64,000 bases of DNA from contig JAXCGZ010011625.1 in the NCBI GenBank assembly GCA_037179515.1, positions 1-64,000 on the forward strand, in the 5' to 3' direction. Below are positions 15,006 through 54,720 of this stretch, piece after piece. The notes beneath the pieces are model-generated. The model saw only the letters and a program-made list of their open reading frames with translations, was not told where the DNA came from and did no database searches. Position numbers and translations under genes: made by a program. Within the stretch, counting starts at the first letter, position 1. Every line of letters starts with the position of its first letter. This DNA is from Halocaridina rubra (Eukaryota; Arthropoda; Malacostraca; Decapoda; Atyidae).

Positions 15006-16418
15006 ATGAACATGGAGGAAACAAGTGAGGGTAGTATTGTAGAGAATACTCCGTCTTTGGTTGTCTGTGTGAAATCTAAAGAAAAATCTTTTCTCTGTAC
15101 TGGAAGTGGCAAGATATTTGCTAATACAAGCACACTAGCAAAACACATTAGAGTGCACTCACAAGAAAAGCCATACACTTGCGGCATATGCGAAAAGAGT
15201 TTTAGTCAAAAGAAACATCTTATTCAACATATGAGGGTTCATACCAAAGAGAAGCCATTTATTTGTTCTGAATGCGGAAAGTGTTTTAATCGGAAAGATA
15301 ATCTGGAAGCTCATATGAGGGTTCACACTAAAGAGAAAAAATTTTTTTGTTCCGAGTGCAGAAAGGGTTTTAGTCGAAAAGACCGTCTCAATGCTCATAT
15401 AACAATCCATACAAAGAAAAAACCATTCATATGTAAGGTGTGTGGTAAAAGTTTCACACACACACATAGTCTTAGTCGTCATCTAGATACCCATCTTGAT
15501 ATAAAACCTTATTCTTGTCCTTTATGTGACCAAGGCTTTACTCAGTCAAGCCTTGTCACGAGCCACATGAGGGTACATACAAAAGAAAAACCCTTTAAAT
15601 GCATGGAATGTGGTCAAGGATTTGCCAGGAAATCTACTCTACATGATCATGTGAGAACACACACACTTGAAAAACCATACGCTTGTGCTGAATGTGGGAA
15701 GAGTTTTCGTGTGAAAAGTACTCTATCTGTCCATATGAGATCACATAAACAAGATGGACCTTATTCGTGTGGTGTATGTCGAATGAGTTTCCGCTTGAAA
15801 CGTGCACTCAGTACACACGCAAGAGTGCATGTGGAGGAGAGACCTTACTCATGTAGTATATGTGGTGCAAAATTTACACGATCTTTCCACCTAAATAGAC
15901 ACATGAAAATACATAATGAAGGTAATAGACTTGGTCTTCAAAAGAAATTGGATACACTGAACTTTGCATCTTCAGGTAATGATGAAGCTCCTGTTTTCAG
16001 TGCAATCCATAATAAGTGTTTAAGACATGATGAATCTTCAGATGCTTTTAAATCTCTAGGAAGTGATGAAACTAGCACATTATGTGTCCGAACTCTTAAA
16101 AATAATCCTGAAAATTTCTCAGATCTCTTTAGTAGTAGTCAGGAGAAAGAGGATGCAACAGATTTCATACAAAAGATAGATGTCTTAGATGAGTTCATTA
16201 GCGTTAAGGAGGAAGTAGTTTTACCTGATGATGAAGGTGATAAAAGAAATGACAATGTAAATGCCTTTGAAGGTGTTAATGACACCAAAGGGAACAACAG
16301 CCATAAAGGCTTAACTCCTGAACTACTGAATTTAAATTTTCCTCATGTTAAGATGGAAGATTTATCAGATAATGAAGGTGATGAAATTGGTGTCCAGGAT
16401 CCCTTGGGTGGTTTGTGA
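15006..16418 (+). CDS. C2H2 zinc-finger protein, 470 aa
   Basis: A single uninterrupted frame with nine canonical C2H2 fingers (about residues 58-305) joined by TKEKP/LEKP/EERP linkers, preceded by one degenerate finger (FLCTGSGKIF) that has lost a zinc-binding cysteine. Tandem fingers of this type normally bind DNA in the nucleus; the target cannot be read from the sequence. The 160-residue tail has no finger, is rich in Asp/Glu/Ser, and contains two sumoylation-type sites (SVKEE and HVKMED). No KRAB, BTB or ZAD domain is seen. An in-frame TGA at 14985 precedes the ATG, so the start is closed. A second ATG two codons in (AACATGG) has the better start context. It is the only intact non-mobile gene in the window and may have upstream non-coding exons. 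It could belong to a larger family of intron-poor fingers. Confidence 0.88.
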   Translation: MNMEETSEGSIVENTPSLVVCVKSKEKSFLCTGSGKIFANTSTLAKHIRVHSQEKPYTCGICEKSFSQKKHLIQHMRVHTKEKPFICSECGKCFNRKDNLEAHMRVHTKEKKFFCSECRKGFSRKDRLNAHITIHTKKKPFICKVCGKSFTHTHSLSRHLDTHLDIKPYSCPLCDQGFTQSSLVTSHMRVHTKEKPFKCMECGQGFARKSTLHDHVRTHTLEKPYACAECGKSFRVKSTLSVHMRSHKQDGPYSCGVCRMSFRLKRALSTHARVHVEERPYSCSICGAKFTRSFHLNRHMKIHNEGNRLGLQKKLDTLNFASSGNDEAPVFSAIHNKCLRHDESSDAFKSLGSDETSTLCVRTLKNNPENFSDLFSSSQEKEDATDFIQKIDVLDEFISVKEEVVLPDDEGDKRNDNVNAFEGVNDTKGNNSHKGLTPELLNLNFPHVKMEDLSDNEGDEIGVQDPLGGL

Positions 16419-19861: not shown

Positions 19862-21751
19862 TTGCAACGGGGGGAGTGTTTACAGCTAGAGGTCAAGCTT
19901 GACGACGTCGTGTACTGGACGGACAGTATGCTCGTGCTGCAGTACATCAGCAATCTTAGCAGGCGGTTCAAGACCTACGTTGCTAACAGGGTGGCGCAAT
20001 ACAGCGTCTGGCACCGATCCGACAATGGCGACACGTGCCCTCAGCACATAACCCAGCAGACGACGTATCGCGGGGCCTATCGAACCATGCCATGATGGTG
20101 AGGAGCAGGTGGACAAGTTGGCCGGACTTCCTAGGCTACCCAAGGAAGCATTGGCCTCCGGAAAACACTACGCCGGCAGGAGACACTGAAGACATGGAGC
20201 TGCGACCGCCCTTATCACTGACAGCGTTGGTAACTGAGACTCCACCTTCAGCATCTCAATGCCTCTGGAACCAGTTCTCTAGCTGGGATACATTACTGAG
20301 ATCGGTGGCCTGGCTATGGAGGTTCATCGGGTGGCGCTTTCCCAGGCTGGCCTCTCTGGTGAACAATCATAGCTACATTTCCGTGGACGAGTTACACATG
20401 GCTGAACATCAGGTTATTAAGGCCGTGCAAAAGGAGAGTTATGGGGAGGCAGTCAAGGCTCTCCGAAGTGGCAAGCCACCCACCAAGAGCTGTGGGATAT
20501 TCTTCTTTGAGCCACACCTAGATTCGAAAGGTTTAGTACGAGTGGGTGGTTGCCTACGTAAAGCCGTGGTGACACAGGACATACGTAACCCAATTCTCCT
20601 CCCTAAGGACCATCCAGTTACTACCCTCGTTATCCGACGCATCCACCAGGTAAATGCAGGACACATGGGGAGGGAGCTCACGATCGCCTCACTGAGAGAA
20701 GAGTACTGGGTCTCACAGGTGCGGCGACTGGTAGATAGATTGCTGAGACAGTGCGTCTTGTGCAAAAGGCAAAATGGGTAGCCGCAACCACAGAGACAGG
20801 CGGATCTTCCAGATGATAGAGTGGCATATGGACGACCCCCCTTTGAGGCCACAGGACTCGACTGCTTTGGCCACTTCATGGTTACCGTGAGACGTCGATG
20901 CGATAAGAGATGGGGCTGCCTCTTTACGTGCCTTAGCACCAGGGCGGTCCACCTGGAGACACTTACCAGGCTAGATGCTACAGACCTACTCTCGGCTATC
21001 TCTCGGTTCACGCGCAGGAGGGGCGTCAAGCCACGGCTGTTGCGATCGGATAATGGCACCAACATGGTACGGGCGTGCAAGGATCTCAAAGAGGCTGCGA
21101 AGTCCTGGGAGGCCGACCGAGTGTTACAAACAAGGCTGGCCGAGCGGGAAATACGTTGGATTTTCAACGCCCCCGGGGCTCCACACGCAGGAGGTGTCTG
21201 GGAGCAACAAATTCGCACTGTAAAGAAAACGCTCTATACTCTGATTGGAAATCAGGTGTTGGATGACGGCCGCCTGCAAACCTTATTCTGTGAGGTGGAG
21301 CGGATCGTCAATAATCGACCGTTAACTATGGCTTCACAGGAGCCAGGGGATGAGACGGTGCTTATGCCTGCTCACGCTCTATATGCCAGGGGGGGATCCC
21401 GGCCCTTTCCCGGGAGTATGGACTGCTGAAGATTGCATCCGACGCCGATGGTGGCACGCACAGCTGCTGGCTAATCAGTTCTGGAAGAGGTGGTTGAGGG
21501 AATATCTGCTGAGTTTGCGGAGCAGACAAAGGAAAGTCTGGGGGAGTCCAAATCTATCCGTTGGTGATGTGGTTCTCATCATGGATATGCCCACCCTTAG
21601 GAATCAGTGGCCACTAGCTAGGGTCATAAAAATCTTCCATAGTGACGATGGGATTGTTCGTTGGGTACGGGTCAGGACGCGCAAGGGGACACTGATGAGG
21701 GCACTGATTCATCTCTGCTTACTGGAGGGAGTGCACATTCCGGAGATGTAA
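19862..21751 (+). pseudogene. BEL/Pao Pol remnant: RNase H end and integrase
   Basis: The first frame (19862-20095) carries VVYWTDSMLVLQYISN and RRFKTYVANRV, the Pao RNase H end. A frameshift near 20035 leads to PSAHNPADDVSRGL and the long linker, then the zinc-binding HMGRELT...CVLCKRQNG. A single in-frame TAG at 20779-20781 interrupts. The same frame resumes with the integrase core GLDCFGHFMV, LLRSDNGTNM and PHAGGVWEQQIRTVKK (Pao DDE region; the Asp residues and the Glu of GGVWEQ are present). A further shift in a G run at about 21393 leads to the C-terminal RKVWGSPNLSVGDVVLIMD and NQWPLARVIKIF. Reverse transcriptase and Gag are gone. Inactive. Confidence 0.88.
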
Positions 21752-40875: not shown

Positions 40876-43024
40876 TGATTACCTAATTGTGATTACCTAA
40901 TTGTGTTTACGGGAAAGAGCCCAAAGCTCGTATCTTCTCGTCTCCTCATCGGTTCCATTTTATACTTAGTGATACTTATCATACCTGTCCTTAAAACTAT
41001 GGATTGAGATAGCATTGACTACCTCCTCGCTTAGCCAATTCCAATTATCAACTACTCTTACACCGAAAAACTATTTCCTTATATCCTGCAAACAAGTTTT
41101 CTTACGAAGCTTCAAACTATGACCTCTAGTTCTAGAGCCAGCCATATCAAAATATCGATCCCTATCCACTCTATCATAACCATGAAGGAATTTAAAGACT
41201 GTCACCATATCCCCCCTCACTCTTCTAGCTTCGAGTGATGGTAAGTCTAATTCCCTCAGCCTCTCATCATAACTGAGATTGCGTATTTCTGGCACCAGTT
41301 TCGTGGCATGTCTTTGAACTTTTTCAAGCTTACCTATGTGCTTTTTCAAGTGCGGATTCCAAAAGGGTTCTGCATATTCGAGTTTTGGCCTCACATACGT
41401 TACATAAATATTTCTGAACATTTCCTTGTCCATGTGCCTGAAGGCTACCCTTACATTTAATAAGAATGCATATGCTGCCCTTACTATGCCATTTATATGT
41501 ATTTCTGGAGACAAATCTGCCAGTATGTTTACTCCTAGATCTCTCTCATTTTCTGTCTCTTGAAGTTGTACTCCAGCCACCGAGTAGTCAAGCTTGGGCC
41601 TTCTTGCACTTGTACCCATTCTCATTACCTTACATTTTGAAGTATTGAATTTTCATTAGCCACTTTTCTGACCACTCATGCAGATTATTTAGATCCTCCT
41701 GAAGTTCTCTACCATTGTTCTCGTTTTTTACTTTCTTCACAATCTTTGCATCATCTGCAAACATATTCATGAATGAATTTACCGACTCTGGTAGGTCATT
41801 TACATATACAAGGAACAAAAGTGGCCCTAAAACTGAACCCTGTGGAACTCCACTACTAACTCTTCTCCATTCAGACACTGAGTGTCTTACTCTAACCCTC
41901 TGTTCCCTTCCTTCTAAGTAAGTTTTTATCCATTCCAAAACATTTCCACCTATTCTAGCCATTGATTGCAGCTTCCTAATAAGTCTCCAATGTGGAACAG
42001 TGTCAAACGCTTTCTGGAAGTCTAGGAATATGCAATCTGCCCAGCCCTCTCTTTCCTGTAAGATTTGGCTTACCTCATCATAAAATTCTAATAAGTTTGT
42101 TACTGTTGATCTACCTTCTCTGAAGCCATGTTGCCTCACTGACAAAAAGTTGAAGGATTCCAAGTGAAGAGAGATGTTTCCTTAGTAGTTTCTCCATAAC
42201 TTTGCAAACTATGCTGGTCAAGGAAACTGGTCTATAGTTCAGAGCCGTATCCCTCCTTCCCTTTTTGAAGATAGGTATCACATTTGCTTGTTTCCAGCAT
42301 CTTGGAATCTCCCCCGACTCCAGTGACTCCTTAAATATGATACTTAGTGCCACTGATATTGTGTTTGCGCATTTTTTAAGCACATGAGGGGATCTGTCAT
42401 CAGGACCTGTAGCTTTATGAACATCTAAATCCGTCAGCGCTTTGCATACCTCTGTGGCTGTAAGGTTGATGTTCTCTAATACCAGCCCTTGAGCTTCTAT
42501 CACTGCAATCTGAGGGGGTGGGGTATTTTCTACTGTAAATACTGACTGAAACTCCTTGTTCAATTCTTTGCAGATCTCTTTATCCGTCTCAGTGATGCTT
42601 CCATCCGCTCTCTTTAGCCTTAAAACCTGTTCTTTTACCTTCAGTTTTCCTCTGATAAAGCTGTGGAAAAGCTTGGGATTTTCTTTAGCCTTCCTGGTGA
42701 TGTCCCTCTCATAGTCTCTCTCTGCCTGGCTCCTTTTACTTAGGTAGTCATTTCTTGCTCTTTTGTAGGTTTGCCAGGCATTTATGTTTTTTCTCCTCCT
42801 ATACCTTTTCCAGCATTTGTCTCTCCACTCCTTAGCTCTTTTACACCCATTATCGAACCATTTCTCTCTGGCATGAATTACACCTACTTTGGTGAAAGGT
42901 ATGCAGCAATCTACTATCTTCCCATATTTCTCACAAAAGATGTCATACATTTCTTGTACAGATTTGTTGTAAAATAAGGTTCTCCAGTCAATAACTGCAA
43001 AAAGCTCATTCATTTTGATGTAAT
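40876..43024 (-). mobile_element. CR1-like LINE copy E, 3' part
   Basis: ORF2 from 43024 down to 41071, with a 2-nt loss near 42172 (KHISLHLES region), a one-T gain near 41645 and a TAG at the QD(I)RK site. FADDAK is intact at about 41750. The copy is interrupted after GTAAT (43020-43024) by the LTR retrotransposon; its 5' part continues at 53962. Confidence 0.9.
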
Positions 43025-45045
43025 TGTGACAGAGTGTTTCGCTCAATGTCAACAGAGGCTGTTAGATGCTTTATTAATTAAATTAGTAACATAACTGTTA
43101 TTTTCTAACTAAAAAAATTAAAATAATTCCCTTTAATATAACTGTTATTTTCTAACTAAAAAAATTAATTCCCACTTCTTGACTTTCGCAGATTATGATT
43201 ATTTGCAATTTGTATTTTTGCTTATAGCTAATTTTAAATAGCTTAGTTACTCTTCCTGTACGTGTAGAAGTATAGCCCCAATATAAAGGCTGCCCCTATT
43301 TTTCTGCCTGCTCAGGGCCAAGAAAATTAAGAGAAGAAGAACCAGTAACCTAACTTTTCATTAGTATTCTCGTTTTATTTTATTTGCTTCCACTTGTTGC
43401 ACCTAAAAATACTGTCTCTCCCTTGCATCTCTGCTATAATTGCCTGCCAGGGACCACCACTAAAATAATCCTTAAAATGAAATCAGAGCCAATTACTGCT
43501 CTAGGAATGTCTCCTACAGATGACGTCACGAAGCACCACGAGGAGACGCTCTCTTTTGGCGCCGAGACTGCCCAGAGGCAACATCTCGCCTGGGTGGTCT
43601 AAGTTTATTTAAAATCATTTTACGTGGCATCTTCACAGGAATTCATCTAGCACAACAAGGAATTCATCTAGCACAACAAGGTGAGGGATAGTGTATGGTA
43701 AAGCTCGTGGGTCAAGCAAATTGGTTTATTTTCGAGAATTAGTTACATTCGTTACTGGATAAATCTTATGGATTTCTATTCTCAGATTCCATTCCCAGTC
43801 ACACGAAATTTTGTAGATTACCACACTGGAATCTCACATGCCAAAGTTAATTCCTTAACCTGTAAATTACAGCTGGTATATATTGCTGAGAAGTTTCTTT
43901 TCACTGAATGTGATAAACGAAAATCTCATCCTCTGAAGACTAAGTTATGAGCCCGTAAAAATCTATCTCTCTTCCTAATAAATTCTAATTTCATTTCACC
44001 CCTTTCTATCATCGTAAATAAAGTGTCTTTTACTTCAAAAACTCGTCAATAAAGCTATTTGCCAAAAAGCCAAATTGCAAATATTCAAAAGGTAATTTTT
44101 CCCAGTTGGCTATGCAAATATTTCTTGTTAACCACATTTTAATGAATGCATACCGTATTTATCTTGCTAATTCTTCATATGTTGGGGATAAAGTGTTTTG
44201 AGTTATAAGTTGCAAATACCTCAAAAGGTGGTTTTGCACCCTTTTTTTATTGCAAAGTTCTTGATAACTAAGAGTGAATGAATACTGTATTTATCTCGTA
44301 GATTCTTCCTTTACCCTAAATAGAGTGTTTTGCCATATTAATTTCATATCCGGAATAAGCATTGCAACTTTTGTGGTTGCCCACAATTTAAGGAATACAT
44401 ACAGTACTGTATTTGTCTTGCTTATTCTTCATTTATTGTGAATATATTATTTTCTTTAAAACCAGTAAAGAATTAATGTTTTGTATGCTATTATGGTAGC
44501 ATAAATATTTCTGGTTAGCTGTGAATAACCTATATATATTCATAAATATTTCTGGTTAGCTGTGAATAACCTATATATATTCATCCAGTAGAATGACATT
44601 GGAAACTCATTATATGTGTGCTCATGCTTTCAGTTTCCCATTATAAACTGTGTCATTTCTGTTTCTGAAATTGCAGTGTCCTGTATTCTACTCTGCCTGT
44701 GTGACAGAGGTAATCATCGAGTTGAGGCCAAAGTCTTGGCATACGTCCGTGGTGCCGGGAAACGAACTCATACTCACCTCCTCCGGGATTCGAGGCAGCA
44801 TTTCATAAAGTTTAATTTGAGAAATTTAATTCAATTCTTTTAATGTCATTGCATTTCCAAAATTAAAAGAAAGTTGAATTCTGAGTTTCATTTAACCGAC
44901 TAATGGTATTGAAGATAGGGTGTGCAAGTACAAATATCTGTCCTGTCTGTTTGTGAGCTCTTAACCGAGCTCGGTACTTTGAGTCCCCTTAGTAAAACAG
45001 AATCTTAACACTCTAGCATCATCATTTAAAATTAAAACCCCCACA
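43025..45045 (+). repeat. 5' LTR (2021 bp)
   Basis: TGTGAC...CCACA. It holds a TATAAAGG box at 43282-43289, which would start transcription about 30 nt later, and AATAAA signals including 44048-44053. A 40-bp direct repeat (taaatatttctggttagctg...) occurs twice at about 44501-44580. Very long for an arthropod gypsy LTR. Short frames inside are not conserved proteins that I recognise. Confidence 0.95.
43282..43289 (+). promoter_or_regulatory. TATA box of the LTR promoter
   Basis: TATAAAGG in a locally GC-richer setting (gcccca..gctgcccc). The same box is in the 3' LTR at about 52198. Position suggests U3/R boundary about 30 nt downstream. Confidence 0.55.
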
Positions 45046-45050
45046 TTAAT

Positions 45051-45068
45051 TGGCGCCCGAACAGGGAC
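45051..45068 (+). promoter_or_regulatory. Primer-binding site, tRNA-Lys type
   Basis: TGGCGCCCGAACAGGGAC lies 5 nt after the 5' LTR. It is complementary to the 3' end of the tRNA-Lys isoacceptor used as primer by lentiviruses and several gypsy groups, so minus-strand cDNA would be primed by host tRNA-Lys. Confidence 0.85.
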
Positions 45069-45731
45069 CCGAACAGACAGACTGATTTTATAAATTTATT
45101 TTTATTTTGCTTTTTAAGATTGCACATGAAACCCGATTACCATTGGCTCGATTATTGAAATGAATGAATTATAAGCTGCACACGAAAATTTTCGCGCTCG
45201 AAACGTTGCGGATAAGAAATTTTTCTTTGTTTTCAATATTGATTATGGTAACTAATATTTTCTTGTTTCCCATGTGGTAAACAATATTTCAGGAAATCTA
45301 CATGAGATTATGTGGTAACAGACTTAAGAAATTTTGCATGACGAGAAGACGTGTTATTTAAAATTTCATTTATTTGCGTGATAAGATTGAGTTTTAAAAC
45401 ATTCGTGTTTTATATATCCGTTAAAGGGTGATACTTGTTAGGAATTGTTTAATTTCCTTGGAATTAGGAATTGGGAGAAAGCATATTAAGTATTTTGCTT
45501 ATAATTGTGTTTTATATTCAAGCATTGACTGCTTATAGATTGGAAGAAAAACTTTGGTGTCATTTATCGAGCCTAGGCTAAGCCTTTCATGTGTCCGAGT
45601 TGTCACATGAAAATAAATTTTCTCATTACTAGTAGAAATGTGTAATCTGGCTGCCTAGTAAGCTGTTAGCTTATCGTTGGTGTATTTTGCATAGGATCTG
45701 TGCCCTTTTGGTAACACTTCAGAATTTTACA

Positions 45732-45893
45732 TACGACATTTTATTTGCGGGTACTGCCATATACGCGCTCATACGCAGGCACGACCGCGATACTGTACTT
45801 GTTCGTATTACTTACGACATTTTATTTGTGGGTACTGCCATATATGCGCTCATACGCAGGCACGACCACTATACTGTACTTGATTGTACTCTC
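45732..45893 (+). repeat. Leader tandem repeat A, 2 x 81 bp
   Basis: Two units (45732 and 45813) begin TACGACATTTTATTTG(C/T)GGG, continue TACTGCCATATA(C/T)GCGCTC and ATACGCAGGCACGACC. Non-coding leader of the LTR element. Confidence 0.85.
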
Positions 45894-45922
45894 AGGCACT
45901 GGGTGCTAGTCGGTAAAATTCG

Positions 45923-46333
45923 GTGTTGCTCATTCCTTTCATTTGCACCATAACTGCAGGTACTGCCACGTATTGCTGTTAAGCAGGCACGACTGCCATT
46001 CTGTATTACCAGTGTTTCATGCACTGTTTTGCAACATATTGTTGCTGTTGCACTTGATTGTGTTGCTCATTCCTTTCATTTGCATGATTACCGCAGGTAC
46101 TGCCACGTATTGCTGTTAAGCAGGCACGACTGCCATTCTGTATCACCAGTGTTTCATACACTGTTTTGCAACATATTGTTGCTGTTGCACTTGATTGTGT
46201 TGCTCATTCCTTTCATTTGCACAATAACCGCAGGTACTGCCACGTATTGCTGTTAAGCAGGCACGACTGCCATTCTGAATTACCAGTGTTTCATACACTG
46301 TTTTGCAACATATTGTTGCTGCTGCACTTGATT
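45923..46333 (+). repeat. Leader tandem repeat B, 3 x 137 bp
   Basis: Units start at 45923, 46060 and 46197 with GTGTTGCTCATTCCTTTCAT, then GCAGGTACTGCCACGTATTG, AAGCAGGCACGACTGCCATT and TTGCAACATATTGTTGCTG. They share GGTACTGCCA and GCAGGCACGAC with repeat A, so one motif occurs five times in 600 bp. Role unknown. Confidence 0.9.
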
Positions 46334-46502
46334 GAATTTTGAGTCACTTTTATGGTGAGATTTTGAGATCACTTTTACGTTTGAGTTTGAACTGTGGTGT
46401 TGTGTGGTTCTTTCATTTTTGTTTTCTACTACCGTATTGTAGAGATTTGTTTTTCTGTGTGGTTGTTTTGGCACTTCGTTATTGACTGTTTAGGAAACCA
46501 CC

Positions 46503-49500
46503 ATGGCAACCAGGCAGGCACAGGAAACAAACATGGAAACCATCCAAACATTCGATGAGGAGCGTTACCTAGACACAATGATTGCTAGGGGTGAGAGATA
46601 CGGTCTTTCCCCAGAGAAGAAGCTCTACGAATGGGCTCATGAGAGGATGGTTGAACGCCGAGATAAGCTGGAGGCACAAGCACGTGAGGAGGCACAGGCG
46701 CAAGCAAAACGTGAGGAGGCACAAGCACAACGTGAGGAGGCACAAGCACAACGTGAACATGAGCTTGCGCTTGCTCGGCTTCGAGCGGAAATCCCAGACA
46801 GTGGTCTTTCAACCGGAAATGGGAACCAGCCTCGGGAGAGGCCCTCCCCAATACCAAAGTACGAGGACGACGGCGGGCAACCGCTTGATTCTTACATCCG
46901 CTCTTTCGAAAGTCTTGCGGCAGTTAACGAAGGCACAGAGTTTGAGAAGAGTCGTTGGCTGCTAACCTCCATGCCACCCCGTCTGCTCTCCCTGGTCAGT
47001 GAACTCGACCAAATGCAACTGAGGGACTATGAGAAAGTTAAAAGCACACTCCTGGCCTCACAGTACCTTTCACCAGCTGAGTGTCGTGCTAGGTATCTTT
47101 CTGCTTTCCCATTGAAGGAGGAGAACTGTAGTACCTTTGGCAAACGCAAGGCTCGCCTCTTTAATGATTGGTTACGGGTTGCAAAGTGTCCTCGTGAGAA
47201 GTTGTATGCGTTCTTGATGTTTGATGCAATTGCCAATGAACTTCCTCCAGAGGTTGTTGCATATGTAAGGACTCAGCTTAAGGATGAGATCGACTACGAG
47301 AAAAGTCTAGCTGCTGTGGACGAGTACCTCCAGCACAACCAGCCCGGAGTACGCCTCTGTGATGTTTTGAGGGCAAGGAGGGCCGATTCCAAGGTTCGTC
47401 CTCAGAGTTGTATCTCCCCCGCAGCAAGCCATGATTCTCACCGGAAAGGAGAACATAGGAACGGGAAGCACAAGGGCCCCTCGCAGAACTCACATCGTCC
47501 AGCACATCTTCCTTACACTCCAAAGCCTTATCACGGCAATGCACCCACACTCAAGAAGGATAACTCAGTAAGAACTAAGCCTCAGCAGTTCAGAGGCAAA
47601 GGCCATTACTCTGCTCCTCCTTCCCAGGGTTTTCAGCAAAACTCTAAGAGCCACCACGCTCCCTCACACAGTGGCGGCCCACAAAGCCGTCCAGCCACGC
47701 ACGTGGCCCATGCTGTAGAAATAAGGCCAGAAAGGGCCACTGGGGATAACGCCGAGGAACCTACGTATAAACTTGCCAATGTGGAACTCACCGGATGGGG
47801 TAATCCGCAGGTGATCCCAAAATGTCTAGGAACTATAAATGGTGTGGAAGTTGAGATAGCCCTCGACACAGGGGCCAATGGCATATTTGTTGACGAGAGA
47901 TTCGTCAGGGATGAAGATTATACCGGCGAAGTCGTTCGTGTGCGGGTTGCTGAAGGAACACCCCAAATACGACGCTGCTGTGTCATTAACCTGGATTGCA
48001 AATACTACAAGGGAAAAGCCCCAGCTGTGGCAATGATTGGGCTTATGTACCCTGTCTTGATGGGTCGTGCACTGAACCTAGTTCCTACTTTCCAGGCCGA
48101 CCTCTACCATAAGGACATTTCTCGTTATAACTTCCCTCAGGGGGAGTCACATGAAGCCATTTCAGCAGCGACTCCTGGCATCGATGCCAAGAATATGGAC
48201 GATTCTCCGACTGACTCCGTTGAGTCTGCCGCAGTTAGTAAACGTAATGTGGAACACAGAGAGTTTACCCCTCCTTTACCAGATGATGCACCTCTAGAGC
48301 CATTGAAGTCCCGTCCAGACTTTGCCAAATTGCAGCAAGACTGCCCCAGCCTCAAACGCTGGATGCAGCAGGCCACCGAGGGAAGGACCTTCACGGTGAG
48401 AGGAGGAGGCCAGATCACTTACGTCTTTGAAGATGGAGTACTTCGTAGGCATGTGACTAAAGGTGGCCACACCTTTAAACAGTTGGTGGTGCCCGCTTCG
48501 TTGCGCCGCCAGGCTATGTATGTGGCACACCATTTACCTCTGAGTGGACACAGAGGCAAAGCAAAAACTCGGCATGTCCTTCAGAAGGCTTTTGCATGGC
48601 CAAACATGTACGCCGAGGTAGACAGATATGTAGGTTCCTGCCCTGTCTGTCAATCCACCTCAACGGCACCAGTACCGAAAGTTCCCATGGGGATAACTAA
48701 GCTCTCAATGGAGCCAATTTTAAATGTCGCTGTTGACATACTAGGTCCTATTAATCCAACTTTGTCCACGGGGAAACAATTCCTCCTGGTATATGCTGAC
48801 CTGGCAACAAGGTACCCAGATGCAGTGCCACTGTCTTCTATCACAACTGAAGCAGTCGCTCAAGCCCTATTTGAAATGTGCTCCAGGGTTGGCTTTCCTG
48901 AGCAGGTCACTTCTGACAATGGAAGCCAGTTTACAAGTAGGCACTTTGAGGCTTTCTGTAACCTTTTAGAAATCAAGCACATTCGTACGAGTGTCTATCA
49001 TGCCCAATCAAATGGAGCATGCGAACGCTATAACGGGACATTGAAGCGATGTTTGCGCAAGCTAGTGATAGATATGCCTAGGCAGTGGGACAAGTACGTC
49101 CCTGCTGCACTTTTCTCCTTCAGAGACACGCCCCACGACACTACTGGATACTCGCCTTTCGAGATGATTTATGGTCATAAGGTCAGAGGCCCAGTAGAAT
49201 TCTTGGCAGAATGTTGGGATTCACCTACCATTGAAGATGACGATAGGGACGTTCATGAGTATATTTTGAAGTTTTCGTCTCACCTCAAAAAGGCTTGGAA
49301 AACTGCACAATTAGCCATTAAGGGTCACCAGCAGACTGCCAAGCTCCTCTTTGACAAGCGTGCGCGGCGTCGTGCCCTGACACCCGGAGATCGAGCTCTG
49401 TTACTTCTTCCAACAGATACCCGCAAGCTAATGCTACGCTGGAAAGGACCGTACACTGTGGTACACCGGGTGACCCCTGACAACTATGTGCTAAATGTTG

Positions 49501-51302
49501 ATGGCATTAACCGGAAATACCACATTAACCAGCTGAAGCTTTATTGTGAGGACCCGGAGGCCCACAGGGATCCTGCGCTGGCGCTCCCAGCAACCCCTAT
49601 AGATGCCTCAAGCATCAACAGAACCTCCGAGGCTGCAGCAACACAGGTGCTCCATTATAGCCACCCCTTACTTCCTATATTGGAATACTCCACCCTTGCA
49701 GTGGAGACAGACTTACGGGAGTGGAGTTTTTCTGAAGAAGCCCCTCTGGCTGCAGCCACCGCTCTTGCAATTGAAGACATAAGCTTAGCTTTTGATGATG
49801 GTAAGGATCCTGCCATTCCCACACACCGAAAAGAAAGTGTGAGTAATTGTATTATTAACTCCAGACTGCAACCGAGTCAACGGGAACAGCTGAACAAGCT
49901 ATTTGAGGACTATGAGAACGTCTTCAACGACCTCCCAGGCATTACCACTACCCTTGAGCATCATGTCAGACTGACTGACCCAGAGCCATTTCGGCATTCC
50001 TATGGTCTTCCCCACCAGCTGTCCTTACGGCTGAAGGAAGATCTTGACACTTGGGTCCGCCTCGGAATAGTTGAAAAGAGCATTTCGCCTTGGTGTTCGC
50101 CGTTACTGGCAGTGCGTAAGCGAGATGGCAGTCACAGGTTCTGCCTTGACTGTCGTAAGCTTAACTCCTGTACCATCTTTGATGGAGAGCCCATTGCTGA
50201 CGCCGAGCATATTTTCTCGTTGCTTTCTCAAGCCCGTTACCTGTCCAAGTTGGATTTGGCCAGTGGATTTTGGCAAGTCCCGTTGAGCGAGACTACCAAG
50301 CCTCTTACAGCTTTTTCCACAAGATATGGTCTATACCAGTTCAGGGTCATGCCTTTTGGTATGGTAAATGCCCCTGGCTGCTTCAGCAGACTCATGAGGA
50401 TAGTACTACAAGATCTCGACAATGTTTCATGCTTTATAGACGACATCCTGGTGCATTCTCAGGATTGGTCATCGCACCTCGAGACTCTCCGCAGAGTTCT
50501 CACTCGTCTGAACCAGCATGGACTTCACTTAAAGCCTTCCAAATGTGAGATTGGTTTCACACAATTGCAGTATCTCGGCCACGTGGTTGGAGAAGGAGTT
50601 ATGTCCCCTATACATGACAGGGTACAAGCTATTAAGGATATGGAGAAACCTGCTACTGTCACTCAACTGAGATCATTCCTGGGTAGTGTCGGCTACTACC
50701 AACGGTTCATTCCACACTTTAATACTATCGCTGCCCCTTTGCAGCAACTGACCTCCTCGAAGCAAAGTAAATCCTCCCCTGTCAAATGGACAGATGAAGC
50801 GGAGAGAGCATTTTTCAAGCTCCGAGAAGCATTGGCAGGTGAGCCAGTATTACAACTGGTAAACCCTGATTTTCCATTTATCTTGCAGACCGACGCCTCA
50901 GGCGAAGGCCTGGGTGCCGTGCTCTTGCAAGCCCGATCAGACAACTCAGCAGAAGTAGCTCCAGTGCGATATGCAAGCCGCAGGCTTCGCCCTGCAGAGC
51001 GAAATTACTCCACCGTGGAGAAGGAAGCTCTAGCTGCATATTGGGCCATAAAGAAATTTGAAGTCCATCTGTATGGCCAACATTTTACACTGAGAACCGA
51101 CCACCGACCTCTCCTATATTTACAGACTGCAGACAAGCTAAATCCTCGTCTGAAAAGGTGGGCACTTTACCTGAATCTTTTTAAATTCACTGCCCAACAT
51201 GTTCATGGCAAGGACAATGACCTTGCTGATCTACTAAGTCGACGGTCGTTACCCTCAAATGAGGAAGCTGGTGCTGTTAGCCTAAATTTGGCTAGTCAGT
51301 AA
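46503..51302 (+). CDS. Gag-Pol polyprotein, 1599 aa, integrase before RT
   Basis: One unbroken frame with an optimal start context (ACCACCATGG). Gag: Glu/Ala/Gln/Arg repeats at about 57-90, a capsid-like helical region at about 115-290 (QPLDSYIRSFES ... LAAVDEYLQ), then a basic His/Lys/Arg tail at about 300-410 with no CCHC knuckle. Protease: LDTGANG with Asp455. Integrase: zinc site H676, H683, C713, C716; catalytic D745, D805, E841 (35 residues between the last two); GPY/F motif at 982-984. RT: LDLASGFWQVPL with D1251 and FIDD with D1313/D1314. RNase H: D1464, the EKEALA block at about 1506 and D1533, ending DNDLADLLSRR. Domain sequence is Ty3/gypsy-like, but integrase precedes RT, as in the Gmr1 group. 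All catalytic residues are present, so it may be functional. Gag and Pol share one frame without a shift. Confidence 0.95.
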   Translation: MATRQAQETNMETIQTFDEERYLDTMIARGERYGLSPEKKLYEWAHERMVERRDKLEAQAREEAQAQAKREEAQAQREEAQAQREHELALARLRAEIPDSGLSTGNGNQPRERPSPIPKYEDDGGQPLDSYIRSFESLAAVNEGTEFEKSRWLLTSMPPRLLSLVSELDQMQLRDYEKVKSTLLASQYLSPAECRARYLSAFPLKEENCSTFGKRKARLFNDWLRVAKCPREKLYAFLMFDAIANELPPEVVAYVRTQLKDEIDYEKSLAAVDEYLQHNQPGVRLCDVLRARRADSKVRPQSCISPAASHDSHRKGEHRNGKHKGPSQNSHRPAHLPYTPKPYHGNAPTLKKDNSVRTKPQQFRGKGHYSAPPSQGFQQNSKSHHAPSHSGGPQSRPATHVAHAVEIRPERATGDNAEEPTYKLANVELTGWGNPQVIPKCLGTINGVEVEIALDTGANGIFVDERFVRDEDYTGEVVRVRVAEGTPQIRRCCVINLDCKYYKGKAPAVAMIGLMYPVLMGRALNLVPTFQADLYHKDISRYNFPQGESHEAISAATPGIDAKNMDDSPTDSVESAAVSKRNVEHREFTPPLPDDAPLEPLKSRPDFAKLQQDCPSLKRWMQQATEGRTFTVRGGGQITYVFEDGVLRRHVTKGGHTFKQLVVPASLRRQAMYVAHHLPLSGHRGKAKTRHVLQKAFAWPNMYAEVDRYVGSCPVCQSTSTAPVPKVPMGITKLSMEPILNVAVDILGPINPTLSTGKQFLLVYADLATRYPDAVPLSSITTEAVAQALFEMCSRVGFPEQVTSDNGSQFTSRHFEAFCNLLEIKHIRTSVYHAQSNGACERYNGTLKRCLRKLVIDMPRQWDKYVPAALFSFRDTPHDTTGYSPFEMIYGHKVRGPVEFLAECWDSPTIEDDDRDVHEYILKFSSHLKKAWKTAQLAIKGHQQTAKLLFDKRARRRALTPGDRALLLLPTDTRKLMLRWKGPYTVVHRVTPDNYVLNVDGINRKYHINQLKLYCEDPEAHRDPALALPATPIDASSINRTSEAAATQVLHYSHPLLPILEYSTLAVETDLREWSFSEEAPLAAATALAIEDISLAFDDGKDPAIPTHRKESVSNCIINSRLQPSQREQLNKLFEDYENVFNDLPGITTTLEHHVRLTDPEPFRHSYGLPHQLSLRLKEDLDTWVRLGIVEKSISPWCSPLLAVRKRDGSHRFCLDCRKLNSCTIFDGEPIADAEHIFSLLSQARYLSKLDLASGFWQVPLSETTKPLTAFSTRYGLYQFRVMPFGMVNAPGCFSRLMRIVLQDLDNVSCFIDDILVHSQDWSSHLETLRRVLTRLNQHGLHLKPSKCEIGFTQLQYLGHVVGEGVMSPIHDRVQAIKDMEKPATVTQLRSFLGSVGYYQRFIPHFNTIAAPLQQLTSSKQSKSSPVKWTDEAERAFFKLREALAGEPVLQLVNPDFPFILQTDASGEGLGAVLLQARSDNSAEVAPVRYASRRLRPAERNYSTVEKEALAAYWAIKKFEVHLYGQHFTLRTDHRPLLYLQTADKLNPRLKRWALYLNLFKFTAQHVHGKDNDLADLLSRRSLPSNEEAGAVSLNLASQ

Positions 51303-51940
51303 AGATTACTTCTCTAATGTGTTGTTTATTTTTATGTTTATCTTTTATGTCTTTAATACTGTACTGTACTTGTTTACTTTAGCGTACAAACGTTATTCCT
51401 AATGGGAAAACGAAAAAGGTGAAGAATAATTTTTTGATCGTAGTTTTATGTTTCCCTTTGTGGGACTTTGAAAGCCAGAACTTGGCAGAAACATTTTAGT
51501 TTAGTGTTGAATAGCTGAAACTGTTTTAAATCCAGTCGCCAATGTTAGTGACGACGTGGTTCAAATGTTTAATTTGCGTATACTGTATTTTATTTTGTAT
51601 ATTATATTATTGCCTTCTTGCATGTGAAGCATTCATAAACTTAAATATTGATATTTACTGATATCTAATTGTGATTTAATTGTCTTGAAATTTGAATTTG
51701 ATCACATTTCTTTTATGTTTTGCATGTCATTTAATGTTTTGTTTACAAGACTTGTTTACTTTTACTAATAGTATGATATGTTCCAGTGGTGGATCCCATT
51801 CTTATTATTCATTTGTCCTTTTCCATGAGAAGGATATCTCATCCCTCATAATAACACTGAAGTCACCGTAACTTCCTCTGTTCTTTTTTCGCCTTCTGTA
51901 GTAGAATTTTGCTAAATCAATATTCTCTAGAAAGGGCCTT
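51303..51940 (+). other. 3' untranslated region of the LTR element
   Basis: 638 bp with no env-like or other ORF. A purine-rich AGAAAGGGCCTT (51929-51940) directly before the 3' LTR is the likely polypurine tract. Confidence 0.7.
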
Positions 51941-53961
51941 TGTGACAGAGTGTTTCGCTCAATGTCAACAGAGGCTGTTAGATGCTTTATTAATTAAATT
52001 AGTAACATAACTGTTATTTTCTAACTAAAAAAATTAAAATAATTCCCTTTAATATAACTGTTATTTTCTAACTAAAAAAATTAATTCCCACTTCTTGACT
52101 TTCGCAGATTATGATTATTTGCAATTTGTATTTTTGCTTATAGCTAATTTTAAATAGCTTAGTTACTCTTCCTGTACGTGTAGAAGTATAGCCCCAATAT
52201 AAAGGCTGCCCCTATTTTTCTGCCTGCTCAGGGCCAAGAAAATTAAGAGAAGAAGAACCAGTAACCTAACTTTTCATTAGTATTCTCGTTTTATTTTATT
52301 TGCTTCCACTTGTTGCACCTAAAAATACTGTCTCTCCCTTGCATCTCTGCTATAATTGCCTGCCAGGGACCACCACTAAAATAATCCTTAAAATGAAATC
52401 AGAGCCAATTACTGCTCTAGGAATGTCTCCTACAGATGACGTCACGAAGCACCACGAGGAGACGCTCTCTTTTGGCGCCGAGACTGCCCAGAGGCAACAT
52501 CTCGCCTGGGTGGTCTAAGTTTATTTAAAATCATTTTACGTGGCATCTTCACAGGAATTCATCTAGCACAACAAGGAATTCATCTAGCACAACAAGGTGA
52601 GGGATAGTGTATGGTAAAGCTCGTGGGTCAAGCAAATTGGTTTATTTTCGAGAATTAGTTACATTCGTTACTGGATAAATCTTATGGATTTCTATTCTCA
52701 GATTCCATTCCCAGTCACACGAAATTTTGTAGATTACCACACTGGAATCTCACATGCCAAAGTTAATTCCTTAACCTGTAAATTACAGCTGGTATATATT
52801 GCTGAGAAGTTTCTTTTCACTGAATGTGATAAACGAAAATCTCATCCTCTGAAGACTAAGTTATGAGCCCGTAAAAATCTATCTCTCTTCCTAATAAATT
52901 CTAATTTCATTTCACCCCTTTCTATCATCGTAAATAAAGTGTCTTTTACTTCAAAAACTCGTCAATAAAGCTATTTGCCAAAAAGCCAAATTGCAAATAT
53001 TCAAAAGGTAATTTTTCCCAGTTGGCTATGCAAATATTTCTTGTTAACCACATTTTAATGAATGCATACCGTATTTATCTTGCTAATTCTTCATATGTTG
53101 GGGATAAAGTGTTTTGAGTTATAAGTTGCAAATACCTCAAAAGGTGGTTTTGCACCCTTTTTTTATTGCAAAGTTCTTGATAACTAAGAGTGAATGAATA
53201 CTGTATTTATCTCGTAGATTCTTCCTTTACCCTAAATAGAGTGTTTTACCATATTAATTTCATATCCGGAATAAGCATTGCAACTTTTGTGGTTGCCCAC
53301 AATTTAAGGAATACATACAGTACTGTATTTGTCTTGCTTATTCTTCATTTATTGTGAATATATTATTTTCTTTAAAACCAGTAAAGAATTAATGTTTTGT
53401 ATGCTATTATGGTAGCATAAATATTTCTGGTTAGCTGTGAATAACCTATATATATTCATAAATATTTCTGGTTAGCTGTGAATAACCTATATATATTCAT
53501 CCAGTAGAATGACATTGGAAACTCATTATATGTGTGCTCATGCTTTCAGTTTCCCATTATAAACTGTGTCATTTCTGTTTCTGAAATTGCAGTGTCCTGT
53601 ATTCTACTCTGCCTGTGTGACAGAGGTAATCATCGAGTTGAGGCCAAAGTCTTGGCATACGTCCGTGGTGCCGGGAAACGAACTCATACTCACCTCCTCC
53701 GGGATTCGAGGCAGCATTTCATAAAGTTTAATTTGAGAAATTTAATTCAATTCTTTTAATGTCATTGCATTTCCAAAATTAAAAGAAAGTTGAATTCTGA
53801 GTTTCATTTAACCGACTAATGGTATTGAAGATAGGGTGTGCAAGTACAAATATCTGTCCTGTCTGTTTGTGAGCTCTTAACCGAGCTCGGTACTTTGAGT
53901 CCCCTTAGTAAAACAGAATCTTAACACTCTAGCATCATCATTTAAAATTAAAACCCCCACA
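51941..53961 (+). repeat. 3' LTR (2021 bp)
   Basis: Same length and, apart from one substitution seen at about 53248, the same sequence as the 5' LTR. It is followed by the GTAAT duplication and the rest of LINE copy E. Confidence 0.95.
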
Positions 53962-54720
53962 GTAATCTCCTTTCGAATAGTTCCTCCTCATGTCCTCAGT
54001 GCCTCTACTCTCAGGAAGAATATCTTCAATGATATACTCCATCAACAACACACAGTGGTCACTCTTTCCAATTGGTGGTTCATACTCAATTTTTTCAATA
54101 TCCAACACATTATCTGTGAACACTAGATCAAGTAGTGATGGCTCATCCCCACCTCTGGCCCTTGTTGGTTCCATTACATGTTGGTGTAGGAAATTCCCTT
54201 GTACGCAATCTAGGAATCTTGCCCCGAATGAGTCCTCACCACTGTGTGGGTCAAGATTTATCCAATCTATCTCTTTATGATTAAAGTCTCCCATAATCAA
54301 AATCCTACATTTTTTTCCCGTGCCATGTTAACAACTGAGTTTATGACTTCAATAGTACCTATATGACTTTCCTCATAAACTTCAAGCCTATTTTGGTTCC
54401 TTGGTGGGTTGTATACAACAGTTATTATAATGCTCTCTGACCCAGTATTTATACGAGCAACAAGAAATTCCTTGAACTCACTTTCTATAGCCAAGTTTAT
54501 TTCTTCAACTTGAATCCTTTCACTTATGAGCAGTGCTATCCCTCCACCAGTCCTCTCAGATCTTTCAACCCTTAGTATTCTGAAGCCCTTAGGAAAAACT
54601 GTGACACTGTTTATGTCCTCACTCAACTTAGTCTCTGTAATTGCTACTATATCTGCCTTACCGTTGTGAATCCTATCTTTTAATTCTACTGCCTTACCAG
54701 CTAATCCGTCAGCATTTGTG
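53962..54720 (-). mobile_element. CR1-like LINE copy E, 5' part
   Basis: Endonuclease half of copy E: KLSEDINSVTVFPKGF ... VVNMAREKNVGF (54297-54626), then a frame change at a seven-A run, then IMGDFNHKEIDWIN ... MRRNYSKGDY. The 5' end (ACACAAATGCTGACGG in reverse complement) joins the tail of copy F. Confidence 0.9.

What the first reader, a model, noticed from the sequence alone, without database searches (positions are those of the whole stretch)
43025..53961. Young, apparently intact gypsy-type element with copia-like pol order (Gmr1-like)
Seen: one 1599-codon ORF with protease (D455), integrase zinc site and D745/D805/E841, then RT (D1251, FIDD at 1311-1314) and RNase H (D1464). The integrase has a GPY/F motif and the RT/RNase H are Ty3/gypsy-like, yet integrase comes before RT. 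Known: this order defines Ty1/copia, and among Ty3/gypsy elements it is the hallmark of the Gmr1 group described from deuterostomes. Inference: an intact copy in what looks like an arthropod genome either extends the group or reflects an independent rearrangement. Near-identical 2021-bp LTRs and a clean GTAAT duplication argue it moved recently.
Basis: partly seen in the sequence, partly recalled or inferred. Interest (0 to 1): 0.88.

Follow-up and report, generated by a model that had tools for sequence, protein, structure and literature searches.

The report
Gmr1-type retrotransposon and its capsid-less relatives
This is a young, intact jumping gene of the already known Gmr1 group, whose enzymes come in an unusual order; the surprise is that the same genome holds many copies that have lost the shell protein and probably borrow it from copies like this one.

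Summary
Window 43025-53961 is a complete LTR retrotransposon: two 2021-bp LTRs differing at one base, GTAAT duplication, and one 1599-codon ORF in the order gag-PR-IN-RT-RNase H. It split a LINE; five other LINE copies in the window show the empty site. Separate IN and RT trees both place it in one clade of IN-before-RT gypsy elements, so it is neither a chimera nor, on this sample, an independent rearrangement. Its capsid is SCAN-like, as in Gmr1 elements. The deuterostome premise is out of date: Gmr1-like elements were reported from decapods in 2013 and from an annelid. So: a new member of a known kind. The surprise lies in the host genome: one in-frame 627-nt deletion removes the capsid, and this capsid-less form outnumbers the capsid-bearing one (675 against 360 sites, unequal thresholds). 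It inserted recently and recombines with the full form. Its pol looks constrained in top-ranked copies, but 3 of 6 copies taken without that ranking are broken. The likeliest reading is a BARE2-like parasite of capsid-bearing copies.

The parts
43020..43024 (.). left target-site duplication GTAAT
43025..45045 (+). 5' LTR, 2021 bp
   Evidence: 1 mismatch to the 3' LTR
45051..45068 (+). primer binding site TGGCGCCCGAACAGGGAC (tRNA-Lys3 type; the tRNA name is recalled), 5 nt after the LTR
   Evidence: exact in 17, with one mismatch in 2 and not found in 1 of 20 other copies
45727..46334 (+). untranslated leader with tandem repeats 81 bp x2 and 137 bp x3
46503..51302 (+). single gag-pol ORF, 1599 codons
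46682..46763 (+). 21-bp repeats coding EEAQAQR-like heptads in the gag N-terminus; number varies between copies
46813..47447 (+). stretch between two CCGGAAA words (starting at 46813 and 47441); net 627 nt are missing in the capsid-less copies
46845..47384 (+). capsid domain (residues 115-294), predicted all helical
   Evidence: a profile of 13 such pieces hits 92 of 92 IN-before-RT relatives over 1350 aa, 12 of which supplied pieces to it
47118..47330 (+). SCAN-like C-terminal part of the capsid (residues 206-276)
   Evidence: PF02023 E 0.0064 for the 180-aa window piece, below Pfam's cut-off; 10 of 13 pieces at E up to 1; the profile hits five SCAN structures; no SCAN hit when the first 466 residues were scanned
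47829..47984 (+). aspartic protease, DTGA at residue 455
48423..49217 (+). integrase (residues 641-905): HHCC within 676-716, D745, D805, E841
49446..49454 (+). GPY of the GPY/F module (residue 982)
50112..50585 (+). reverse transcriptase (residues 1204-1361)
50787..51176 (+). RNase H (residues 1429-1558)
51929..51940 (+). polypurine tract region AGAAAGGGCCTT before the 3' LTR
   Evidence: found in 20 of 20 other copies, one of them with a mismatch
51941..53961 (+). 3' LTR, 2021 bp
53962..53966 (.). right target-site duplication GTAAT

Best explanation
The feature is an intact, recently inserted Ty3/gypsy LTR retrotransposon of the Gmr1 group in what is probably a crustacean genome. Shown: structure, order, near-identical LTRs, target duplication, one common origin of the order with the other IN-before-RT gypsy elements sampled, SCAN-like capsid, about a thousand related sites in the genome. 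Inferred from general retrotransposon biology: one gag-pol polyprotein is made, PR cuts it, the capsid forms a particle, RT primed by a Lys3-type tRNA copies the RNA, and the GPY/F integrase inserts it with a 5-bp duplication. In the same genome a capsid-deleted sister form, with the same LTR ends, primer site and pol, has multiplied beyond the capsid-bearing form; most likely its RNA is packaged by capsid made by copies of the window's type.
For: Structure. Trees: 41 IN-before-RT rows form one clade against 23 canonical rows in IN (100/98) and RT (100/100), Patiria and Holothuria rows among the 41. SCAN-like capsid; capsid fold. Sites in the genome: RT word 1173, capsid-deletion junction 675, capsid word 360, each with zero hits of the reversed pattern. 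Five capsid-less copies with clean 5-bp duplications and 0 to 12 LTR mismatches per about 2 kb. Two copies with crossovers between the classes at 62 diagnostic sites.
Against: No named Gmr1 reference sequence was held, so membership rests on order, trees with deuterostome relatives and the SCAN-like capsid. The SCAN match of the window's own sequence is weak (E 0.0064) and was absent from the scans of the whole ORF and of its first 466 residues. Activity is inferred from sequence alone; no transcript or particle was seen. The gag zinc knuckle is absent. Of six capsid-less copies taken without regard to pol quality, three had an open RT-RNase H piece and three were broken.
Confidence: 0.9

Rival explanations
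1. A chimera: a copia-type pol arrangement or a copia integrase joined to a gypsy RT, by recombination or a misassembly.
For: The order is that of Ty1/copia.
Against: IN and RT both fall in the IN-before-RT clade with the same nearest relatives (P0001-P0003, then P0007) in separate trees; 20 of 20 other copies read carry the same open pol piece, though these were chosen among top-scoring copies; no copia-type RVT_2 hit up to E 0.01.
Confidence: 0.02
2. An independent rearrangement in this lineage that only looks like Gmr1.
For: No named Gmr1 sequence could be included; the canonical rows come mostly from one genome.
Against: One change of order suffices on both careful trees and on all 200 bootstrap trees of each; the capsid profile, built partly from these proteins, hits 92 of 92 long IN-before-RT proteins.
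Confidence: 0.05
3. The capsid-less copies are dead by-products: deletion copies that spread by segmental duplication or were carried along by chance, not a lineage maintained by borrowing capsid.
For: 3 of 6 capsid-less copies taken without regard to pol had broken RT-RNase H pieces; pN/pS was measured on copies ranked by similarity to the window's RT, which favours intact ones; changes seen in one capsid-less copy only are 68 nonsynonymous to 33 synonymous, not far from neutral.
Against: One shared junction in the 12 capsid-less copies read and 675 matches at up to 2 mismatches, different 5-bp duplications and young LTR pairs in five, crossovers with the full form, changes shared by capsid-less copies 16 nonsynonymous to 23 synonymous.
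Confidence: 0.25
4. Capsid-less copies are packaged by the capsid of some other retrotransposon family, or use no capsid at all.
For: No packaging data exist.
Against: Same primer site, polypurine tract and LTR termini as the capsid-bearing copies and crossovers with them point to shared particles.
Confidence: 0.1

Closest known systems
Gmr1 group of Ty3/gypsy (Goodwin and Poulter 2002, recalled; seen here only as a reference in PMC3587641)
   Same: IN upstream of RT, gypsy-type IN with GPY/F and gypsy-type RT-RNase H, SCAN-like capsid
   Different: Host probably outside deuterostomes; gag of this sub-lineage has no CX2CX4HX4C knuckle
Decapod Gmr1-like elements GyRex4/5, Gychoro2, GyMaja1, GyLiva4 (PMC3587641, passages)
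   Same: Probably the same group in a related host
   Different: GyRex4 (RT/RNase H) and GyRex5 (IN) were non-overlapping fragments; here the order is read directly in an intact copy.
Ty3 (PDB 7q5b)
   Same: Closest solved relative (E 5.8e-102)
   Different: RT before IN
BARE1/BARE2 pair of barley (PMC3735527, abstract and passages)
   Same: One-ORF element plus a Gag-deficient subfamily that keeps pol and LTRs and is commoner than its helper
   Different: Copia superfamily (recalled) in a plant; BARE2 lost the gag start codon by an 8-bp deletion, here the capsid domain is cut out in frame and the polyprotein continues

Membership tests
Gmr1 group | integrase encoded upstream of RT | tested here: met
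   Pfam order and motif positions
Gmr1 group | RT-RNase H of Ty3/gypsy type in one clade with other IN-before-RT elements, deuterostome ones included | tested here: met
   100/100, 41 against 23 rows; the drawn quick tree shows Patiria and Holothuria inside
Gmr1 group | integrase of Ty3/gypsy type in the same clade | tested here: met
   100/98
Gmr1 group | direct grouping with named Gmr1, Saugg1 or GyRex sequences | not testable with these tools
   none of these sequences was among the hits; none was written from memory
Gmr1 group | SCAN-type capsid (PMC3406341 passage, citing Emerson and Thomas 2011, which is not held) | tested here: met
   PF02023 E 0.0064 for the 180-aa window piece, below Pfam's cut-off, and 10 of 13 pieces at E up to 1; 17 of 29 whole relatives at E up to 0.01; profile to ZNF174 SCAN 8.8e-5. 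Against: no hit for the window
Ty1/copia | copia-type RT and integrase | tested here: not met
   RVT_1, RT_RNaseH_2, Integrase_H2C2, no RVT_2 up to E 0.01; Ty3 is the best solved relative
Errantivirus or retrovirus (env-bearing) | env ORF between pol and the 3' LTR | tested here: not met
   no ORF of 100 aa or more between 51302 and 51941, 638 nt in all; a short or spliced env was not looked for
BARE2-like Gag-deficient parasite (for the capsid-less copies) | capsid lost, pol and cis-acting sites kept | tested here: met
   for 12 copies; but 3 of 6 copies taken without regard to pol have a broken RT-RNase H piece
BARE2-like Gag-deficient parasite (for the capsid-less copies) | capsid-bearing partner in the same genome | tested here: met
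   360 capsid sites; 8 capsid-bearing copies read besides the window
BARE2-like Gag-deficient parasite (for the capsid-less copies) | RNA packaged in the partner's particles | not testable with these tools
   only indirect: crossovers between the classes

The most novel reading that the evidence does not exclude
In this animal genome the window-type element is the helper of a parasite of its own: a capsid-less derivative born from one deletion between two 7-nt words (CCGGAAA) that keeps the coiled-coil-like gag start, the basic linker and all pol enzymes in one frame, is packaged into the helper's capsids, exchanges sequence with it by template switching, and by the counts here outnumbers it nearly two to one. 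It would be an animal, gypsy-superfamily counterpart of BARE2, with a capsid cut out inside a continuing polyprotein rather than Gag lost altogether.
Probability: 0.55. Interest if true: 0.6.

Novelty: new member of a known kind. Interest (0 to 1): 0.4.

Why it matters
The element itself adds an intact copy to a group already known from crustaceans and shows its order directly. If the capsid-less form is a parasite, the genome offers about a thousand datable copies of helper and parasite side by side, with recombinants. Whether parasites of selfish elements limit or drown their helpers could then be read from sequence in an animal; the worked example that I know of is BARE1/BARE2 in barley.

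Tried and rejected
Considered and rejected: copia membership, chimera, env-bearing element (see membership table and rivals). The ratio of 8 long to 12 capsid-less among the 20 copies fetched first is not a genome ratio: I picked those 20 of the 149 other scored hits by hand to mix ORF lengths. The open frame in 20 of 20 pol pieces is biased too, since ranks by similarity to the window's RT; one search gives 3 of 6 open. Those six were the first six of a one-in-five pick from the 100 listed places of 675, all with an exact junction. The long-form breakpoint pattern gave only 81 sites at up to 2 mismatches because the site varies; the capsid word (360 at up to 3) is the better count. Capsid-less junctions were counted at up to 2 mismatches only; the count at 3 did not complete.

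Rows dropped: P0043_1233 after the first RT tree (in one search the IN-RT label therefore needed 2 changes), and seven Cordylochernes pairs read as IN-RT before any tree; I took these as tandem-fused proteins in which the IN of one element precedes the RT of the next, without a further test. Trees used 42 of 118 IN-RT pairs (41 after the drop) and 22 of 126 RT-IN pairs plus Ty3: named rows, close rows and the first cluster representatives. Of the 22, 20 come from one pseudoscorpion genome and 2 from fish; several have long branches that warns about. Copy 11 was left out of pN/pS because it differs from its nearest copy at 1180 places, which I read as an indel that shifts the register; with it short-short was 0.809. 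Of 20 copies, 5 had no complete LTR pair and 7 of the 15 pairs had ends that my script placed badly or no matching duplication, with up to 22 mismatches.
Full report
WHAT IS THERE. The coordinates are exact. The element spans 43025-53961 (10,937 bp) with LTRs of 2021 bp that differ at one base, flanked by GTAAT. The primer site TGGCGCCCGAACAGGGAC at 45051-45068 is the sequence that I recall as complementary to tRNA-Lys3; it follows the 5' LTR after 5 nt. A single ORF at 46503-51302 codes 1599 residues. Pfam gives, in order, protease (weak), integrase zinc site, integrase core, RT and RNase H. The catalytic residues named in the finding are present. No ORF of 100 aa or more lies between pol and the 3' LTR, so there is no sign of env. 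The element sits inside a minus-strand LINE: the two flanks put together match five other LINE copies in the window over the whole 1195 nt, at 94.8-98.1% identity, with one copy of the duplicated bases.

WHICH GROUP. Of the 120 best database hits (of 2161 with E up to 1e-20), 115 have IN before RT and 5 have RT before IN; since the query was the IN-RT region, the list favours that order. Named sources of IN-before-RT proteins include Penaeus vannamei, P. japonicus, Macrobrachium nipponense, scallops, Crassostrea, Pinctada, Dreissena, Biomphalaria, Elysia, Patella, Patiria and Holothuria. Separate trees of IN and RT, rooted on Ty3, put 41 IN-before-RT rows in one clade against 23 canonical rows, with support 100/98 (IN) and 100/100 (RT). 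The window's nearest rows are the same in both (P0001-P0003, then P0007). The order therefore arose once in this sample and the element is not a chimera. Caveats: 20 of the 23 canonical rows come from one pseudoscorpion genome and 2 from fish, and some have long branches; no named Gmr1 sequence was available.

CAPSID. Residues 115-294 align with gag of relatives. The SCAN family of Pfam matches the window piece at E 0.0064, below its curated cut-off, and 10 of 13 pieces at E up to 1, and 17 of 29 whole relatives at E up to 0.01. It was not reported for the window's whole ORF or its first 466 residues. A profile of the 13 pieces matches five SCAN-domain structures, best ZNF174 at 8.8e-5. The predicted model (pLDDT 89) is all helical and resembles PNMA2, Arc, copia and retroviral capsids, with modest scores. 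That SCAN domains derive from a Gmr1-like capsid is stated in PMC3406341 (passages). The capsid profile hits 92 of 92 IN-before-RT proteins longer than 1350 aa, 12 of which had supplied pieces to it. The zinc knuckle CX2CX4HX4C occurs in 59 of 115 IN-before-RT proteins, but in none of the 44 among P0001-P0046, some of which are short and may lack gag, and not in the window: the window's sub-lineage seems to have lost it and has a His- and Lys-rich tract instead.

PRIOR ART. [quoted passage not shown] PMC8220671 (passages) reports a Gmr1 family in an annelid; PMC8556966 (passages) lists Gmr1 among clades present in several phyla; PMC6238403 (passage) and PMC2774666 (passage) describe the order. 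The finding's main claim of interest is thus known.

COPIES IN THE HOST. The window's assembly has 1.18 Gb in 21,031 contigs. A 250-residue RT query gave 6482 first-look candidates, of which 150 were scored, all 98-100% identical. I fetched pieces of 20 copies. Eight are like the window; twelve lack gag residues of about 105-313. All twelve share one junction. In the window two CCGGAAA words start 628 nt apart at the two edges; the capsid-less copies have one extra base just after the word, so the net loss is 627 nt, in frame. Since the long relatives have the capsid, this is a loss. Primer site and polypurine tract are retained, and leader and 3' region match in the copies read, except that copy 13 lacks the 5' LTR and the first 180 nt of the leader.

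HOW MANY. Counts of 36-mers in the assembly: deletion junction 338+337 at up to 2 mismatches; capsid word 184+176 at up to 3; RT word 601+572 at up to 3; all reversed controls zero. Thresholds differ, so the ratio of about 1.9 to 1 is approximate; 675 and 360 sum to 1035, against 1173 RT sites.

HOW YOUNG, AND DO THEY MIX. Of 20 copies, 15 had both LTRs delimited; eight had clean termini and matching 5-bp duplications, three long and five capsid-less, with LTR mismatches from 0/2023 (capsid-less copy 8, ACCTT) to 12/2018. In pol, pN/pS is 0.339 among long copies and the window (36 pairs) and 0.367 among capsid-less copies (55 pairs, copy 11 left out). Changes shared by two or more capsid-less copies are 16 nonsynonymous to 23 synonymous, those in one copy only 68 to 33, where 3.28 to 1 is the ratio of sites; for the long copies the numbers are 27 to 26 and 32 to 24. 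That is the pattern of a constrained pol that decays after insertion, but these copies were ranked by RT similarity, which inflates constraint. In six capsid-less copies taken from the junction list without that ranking, three have an open RT-RNase H piece, two are broken and one has a deletion. At 62 diagnostic sites in the gag-PR linker the classes are split, with single exceptions, apart from copy 17 (long, switching to the capsid-less type) and copy 1 (capsid-less, switching to the long type and back at the last two sites). Crossovers of this kind are expected when two RNAs share a particle, though gene conversion between DNA copies cannot be excluded.

READING. The window copy is an ordinary young Gmr1-type element. 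The capsid-less lineage is best explained as BARE2-like: BARE2 cannot make Gag, is packaged in BARE1 particles and predominates in barley (PMC3735527, abstract and passages). Shown here: loss, one junction, spread, cis-site retention, mixing. Inferred: packaging in capsids of window-type copies. Not shown: transcripts, particles, host name.

Noticed in passing
29593-62743: About eight copies or pieces of a LINE (endonuclease plus RT) in both orientations, with short arrays of a 14-bp unit (TGTGATTACCTAAT) near several of them; the retrotransposon sits in one of them.
   Followed up: partly
20035-21429: GC-rich (54%) stretch with an integrase zinc site and a weak rve core in two ORFs, perhaps a BEL/Pao-type remnant (family name recalled).
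   Followed up: partly
15006-16418: Open 470-aa C2H2 zinc-finger protein with about nine fingers.
   Followed up: partly
45727-45888: The 81-bp leader repeat seems to vary in number between genomic copies.
   Followed up: no
46682-46763: The number of 7-residue repeats EEAQAQR in the gag N-terminus varies between copies; looks like a coiled coil.
   Followed up: no
L035 (G000:C11387:154568-157779): The 3' LTR of this copy is followed directly by another leader, so two elements seem to share an LTR in tandem.
   Followed up: no
protein hits P0001-P0046: The IN-before-RT proteins closest to the window show no gag zinc knuckle, which 59 of 115 in all keep.
   Followed up: partly
P0118, P0196: An IN-before-RT retrotransposon protein (P0118) and a LINE protein (P0196) are filed under a bacterial and an archaeal metagenome bin, probably animal DNA in the bins.
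   Followed up: no
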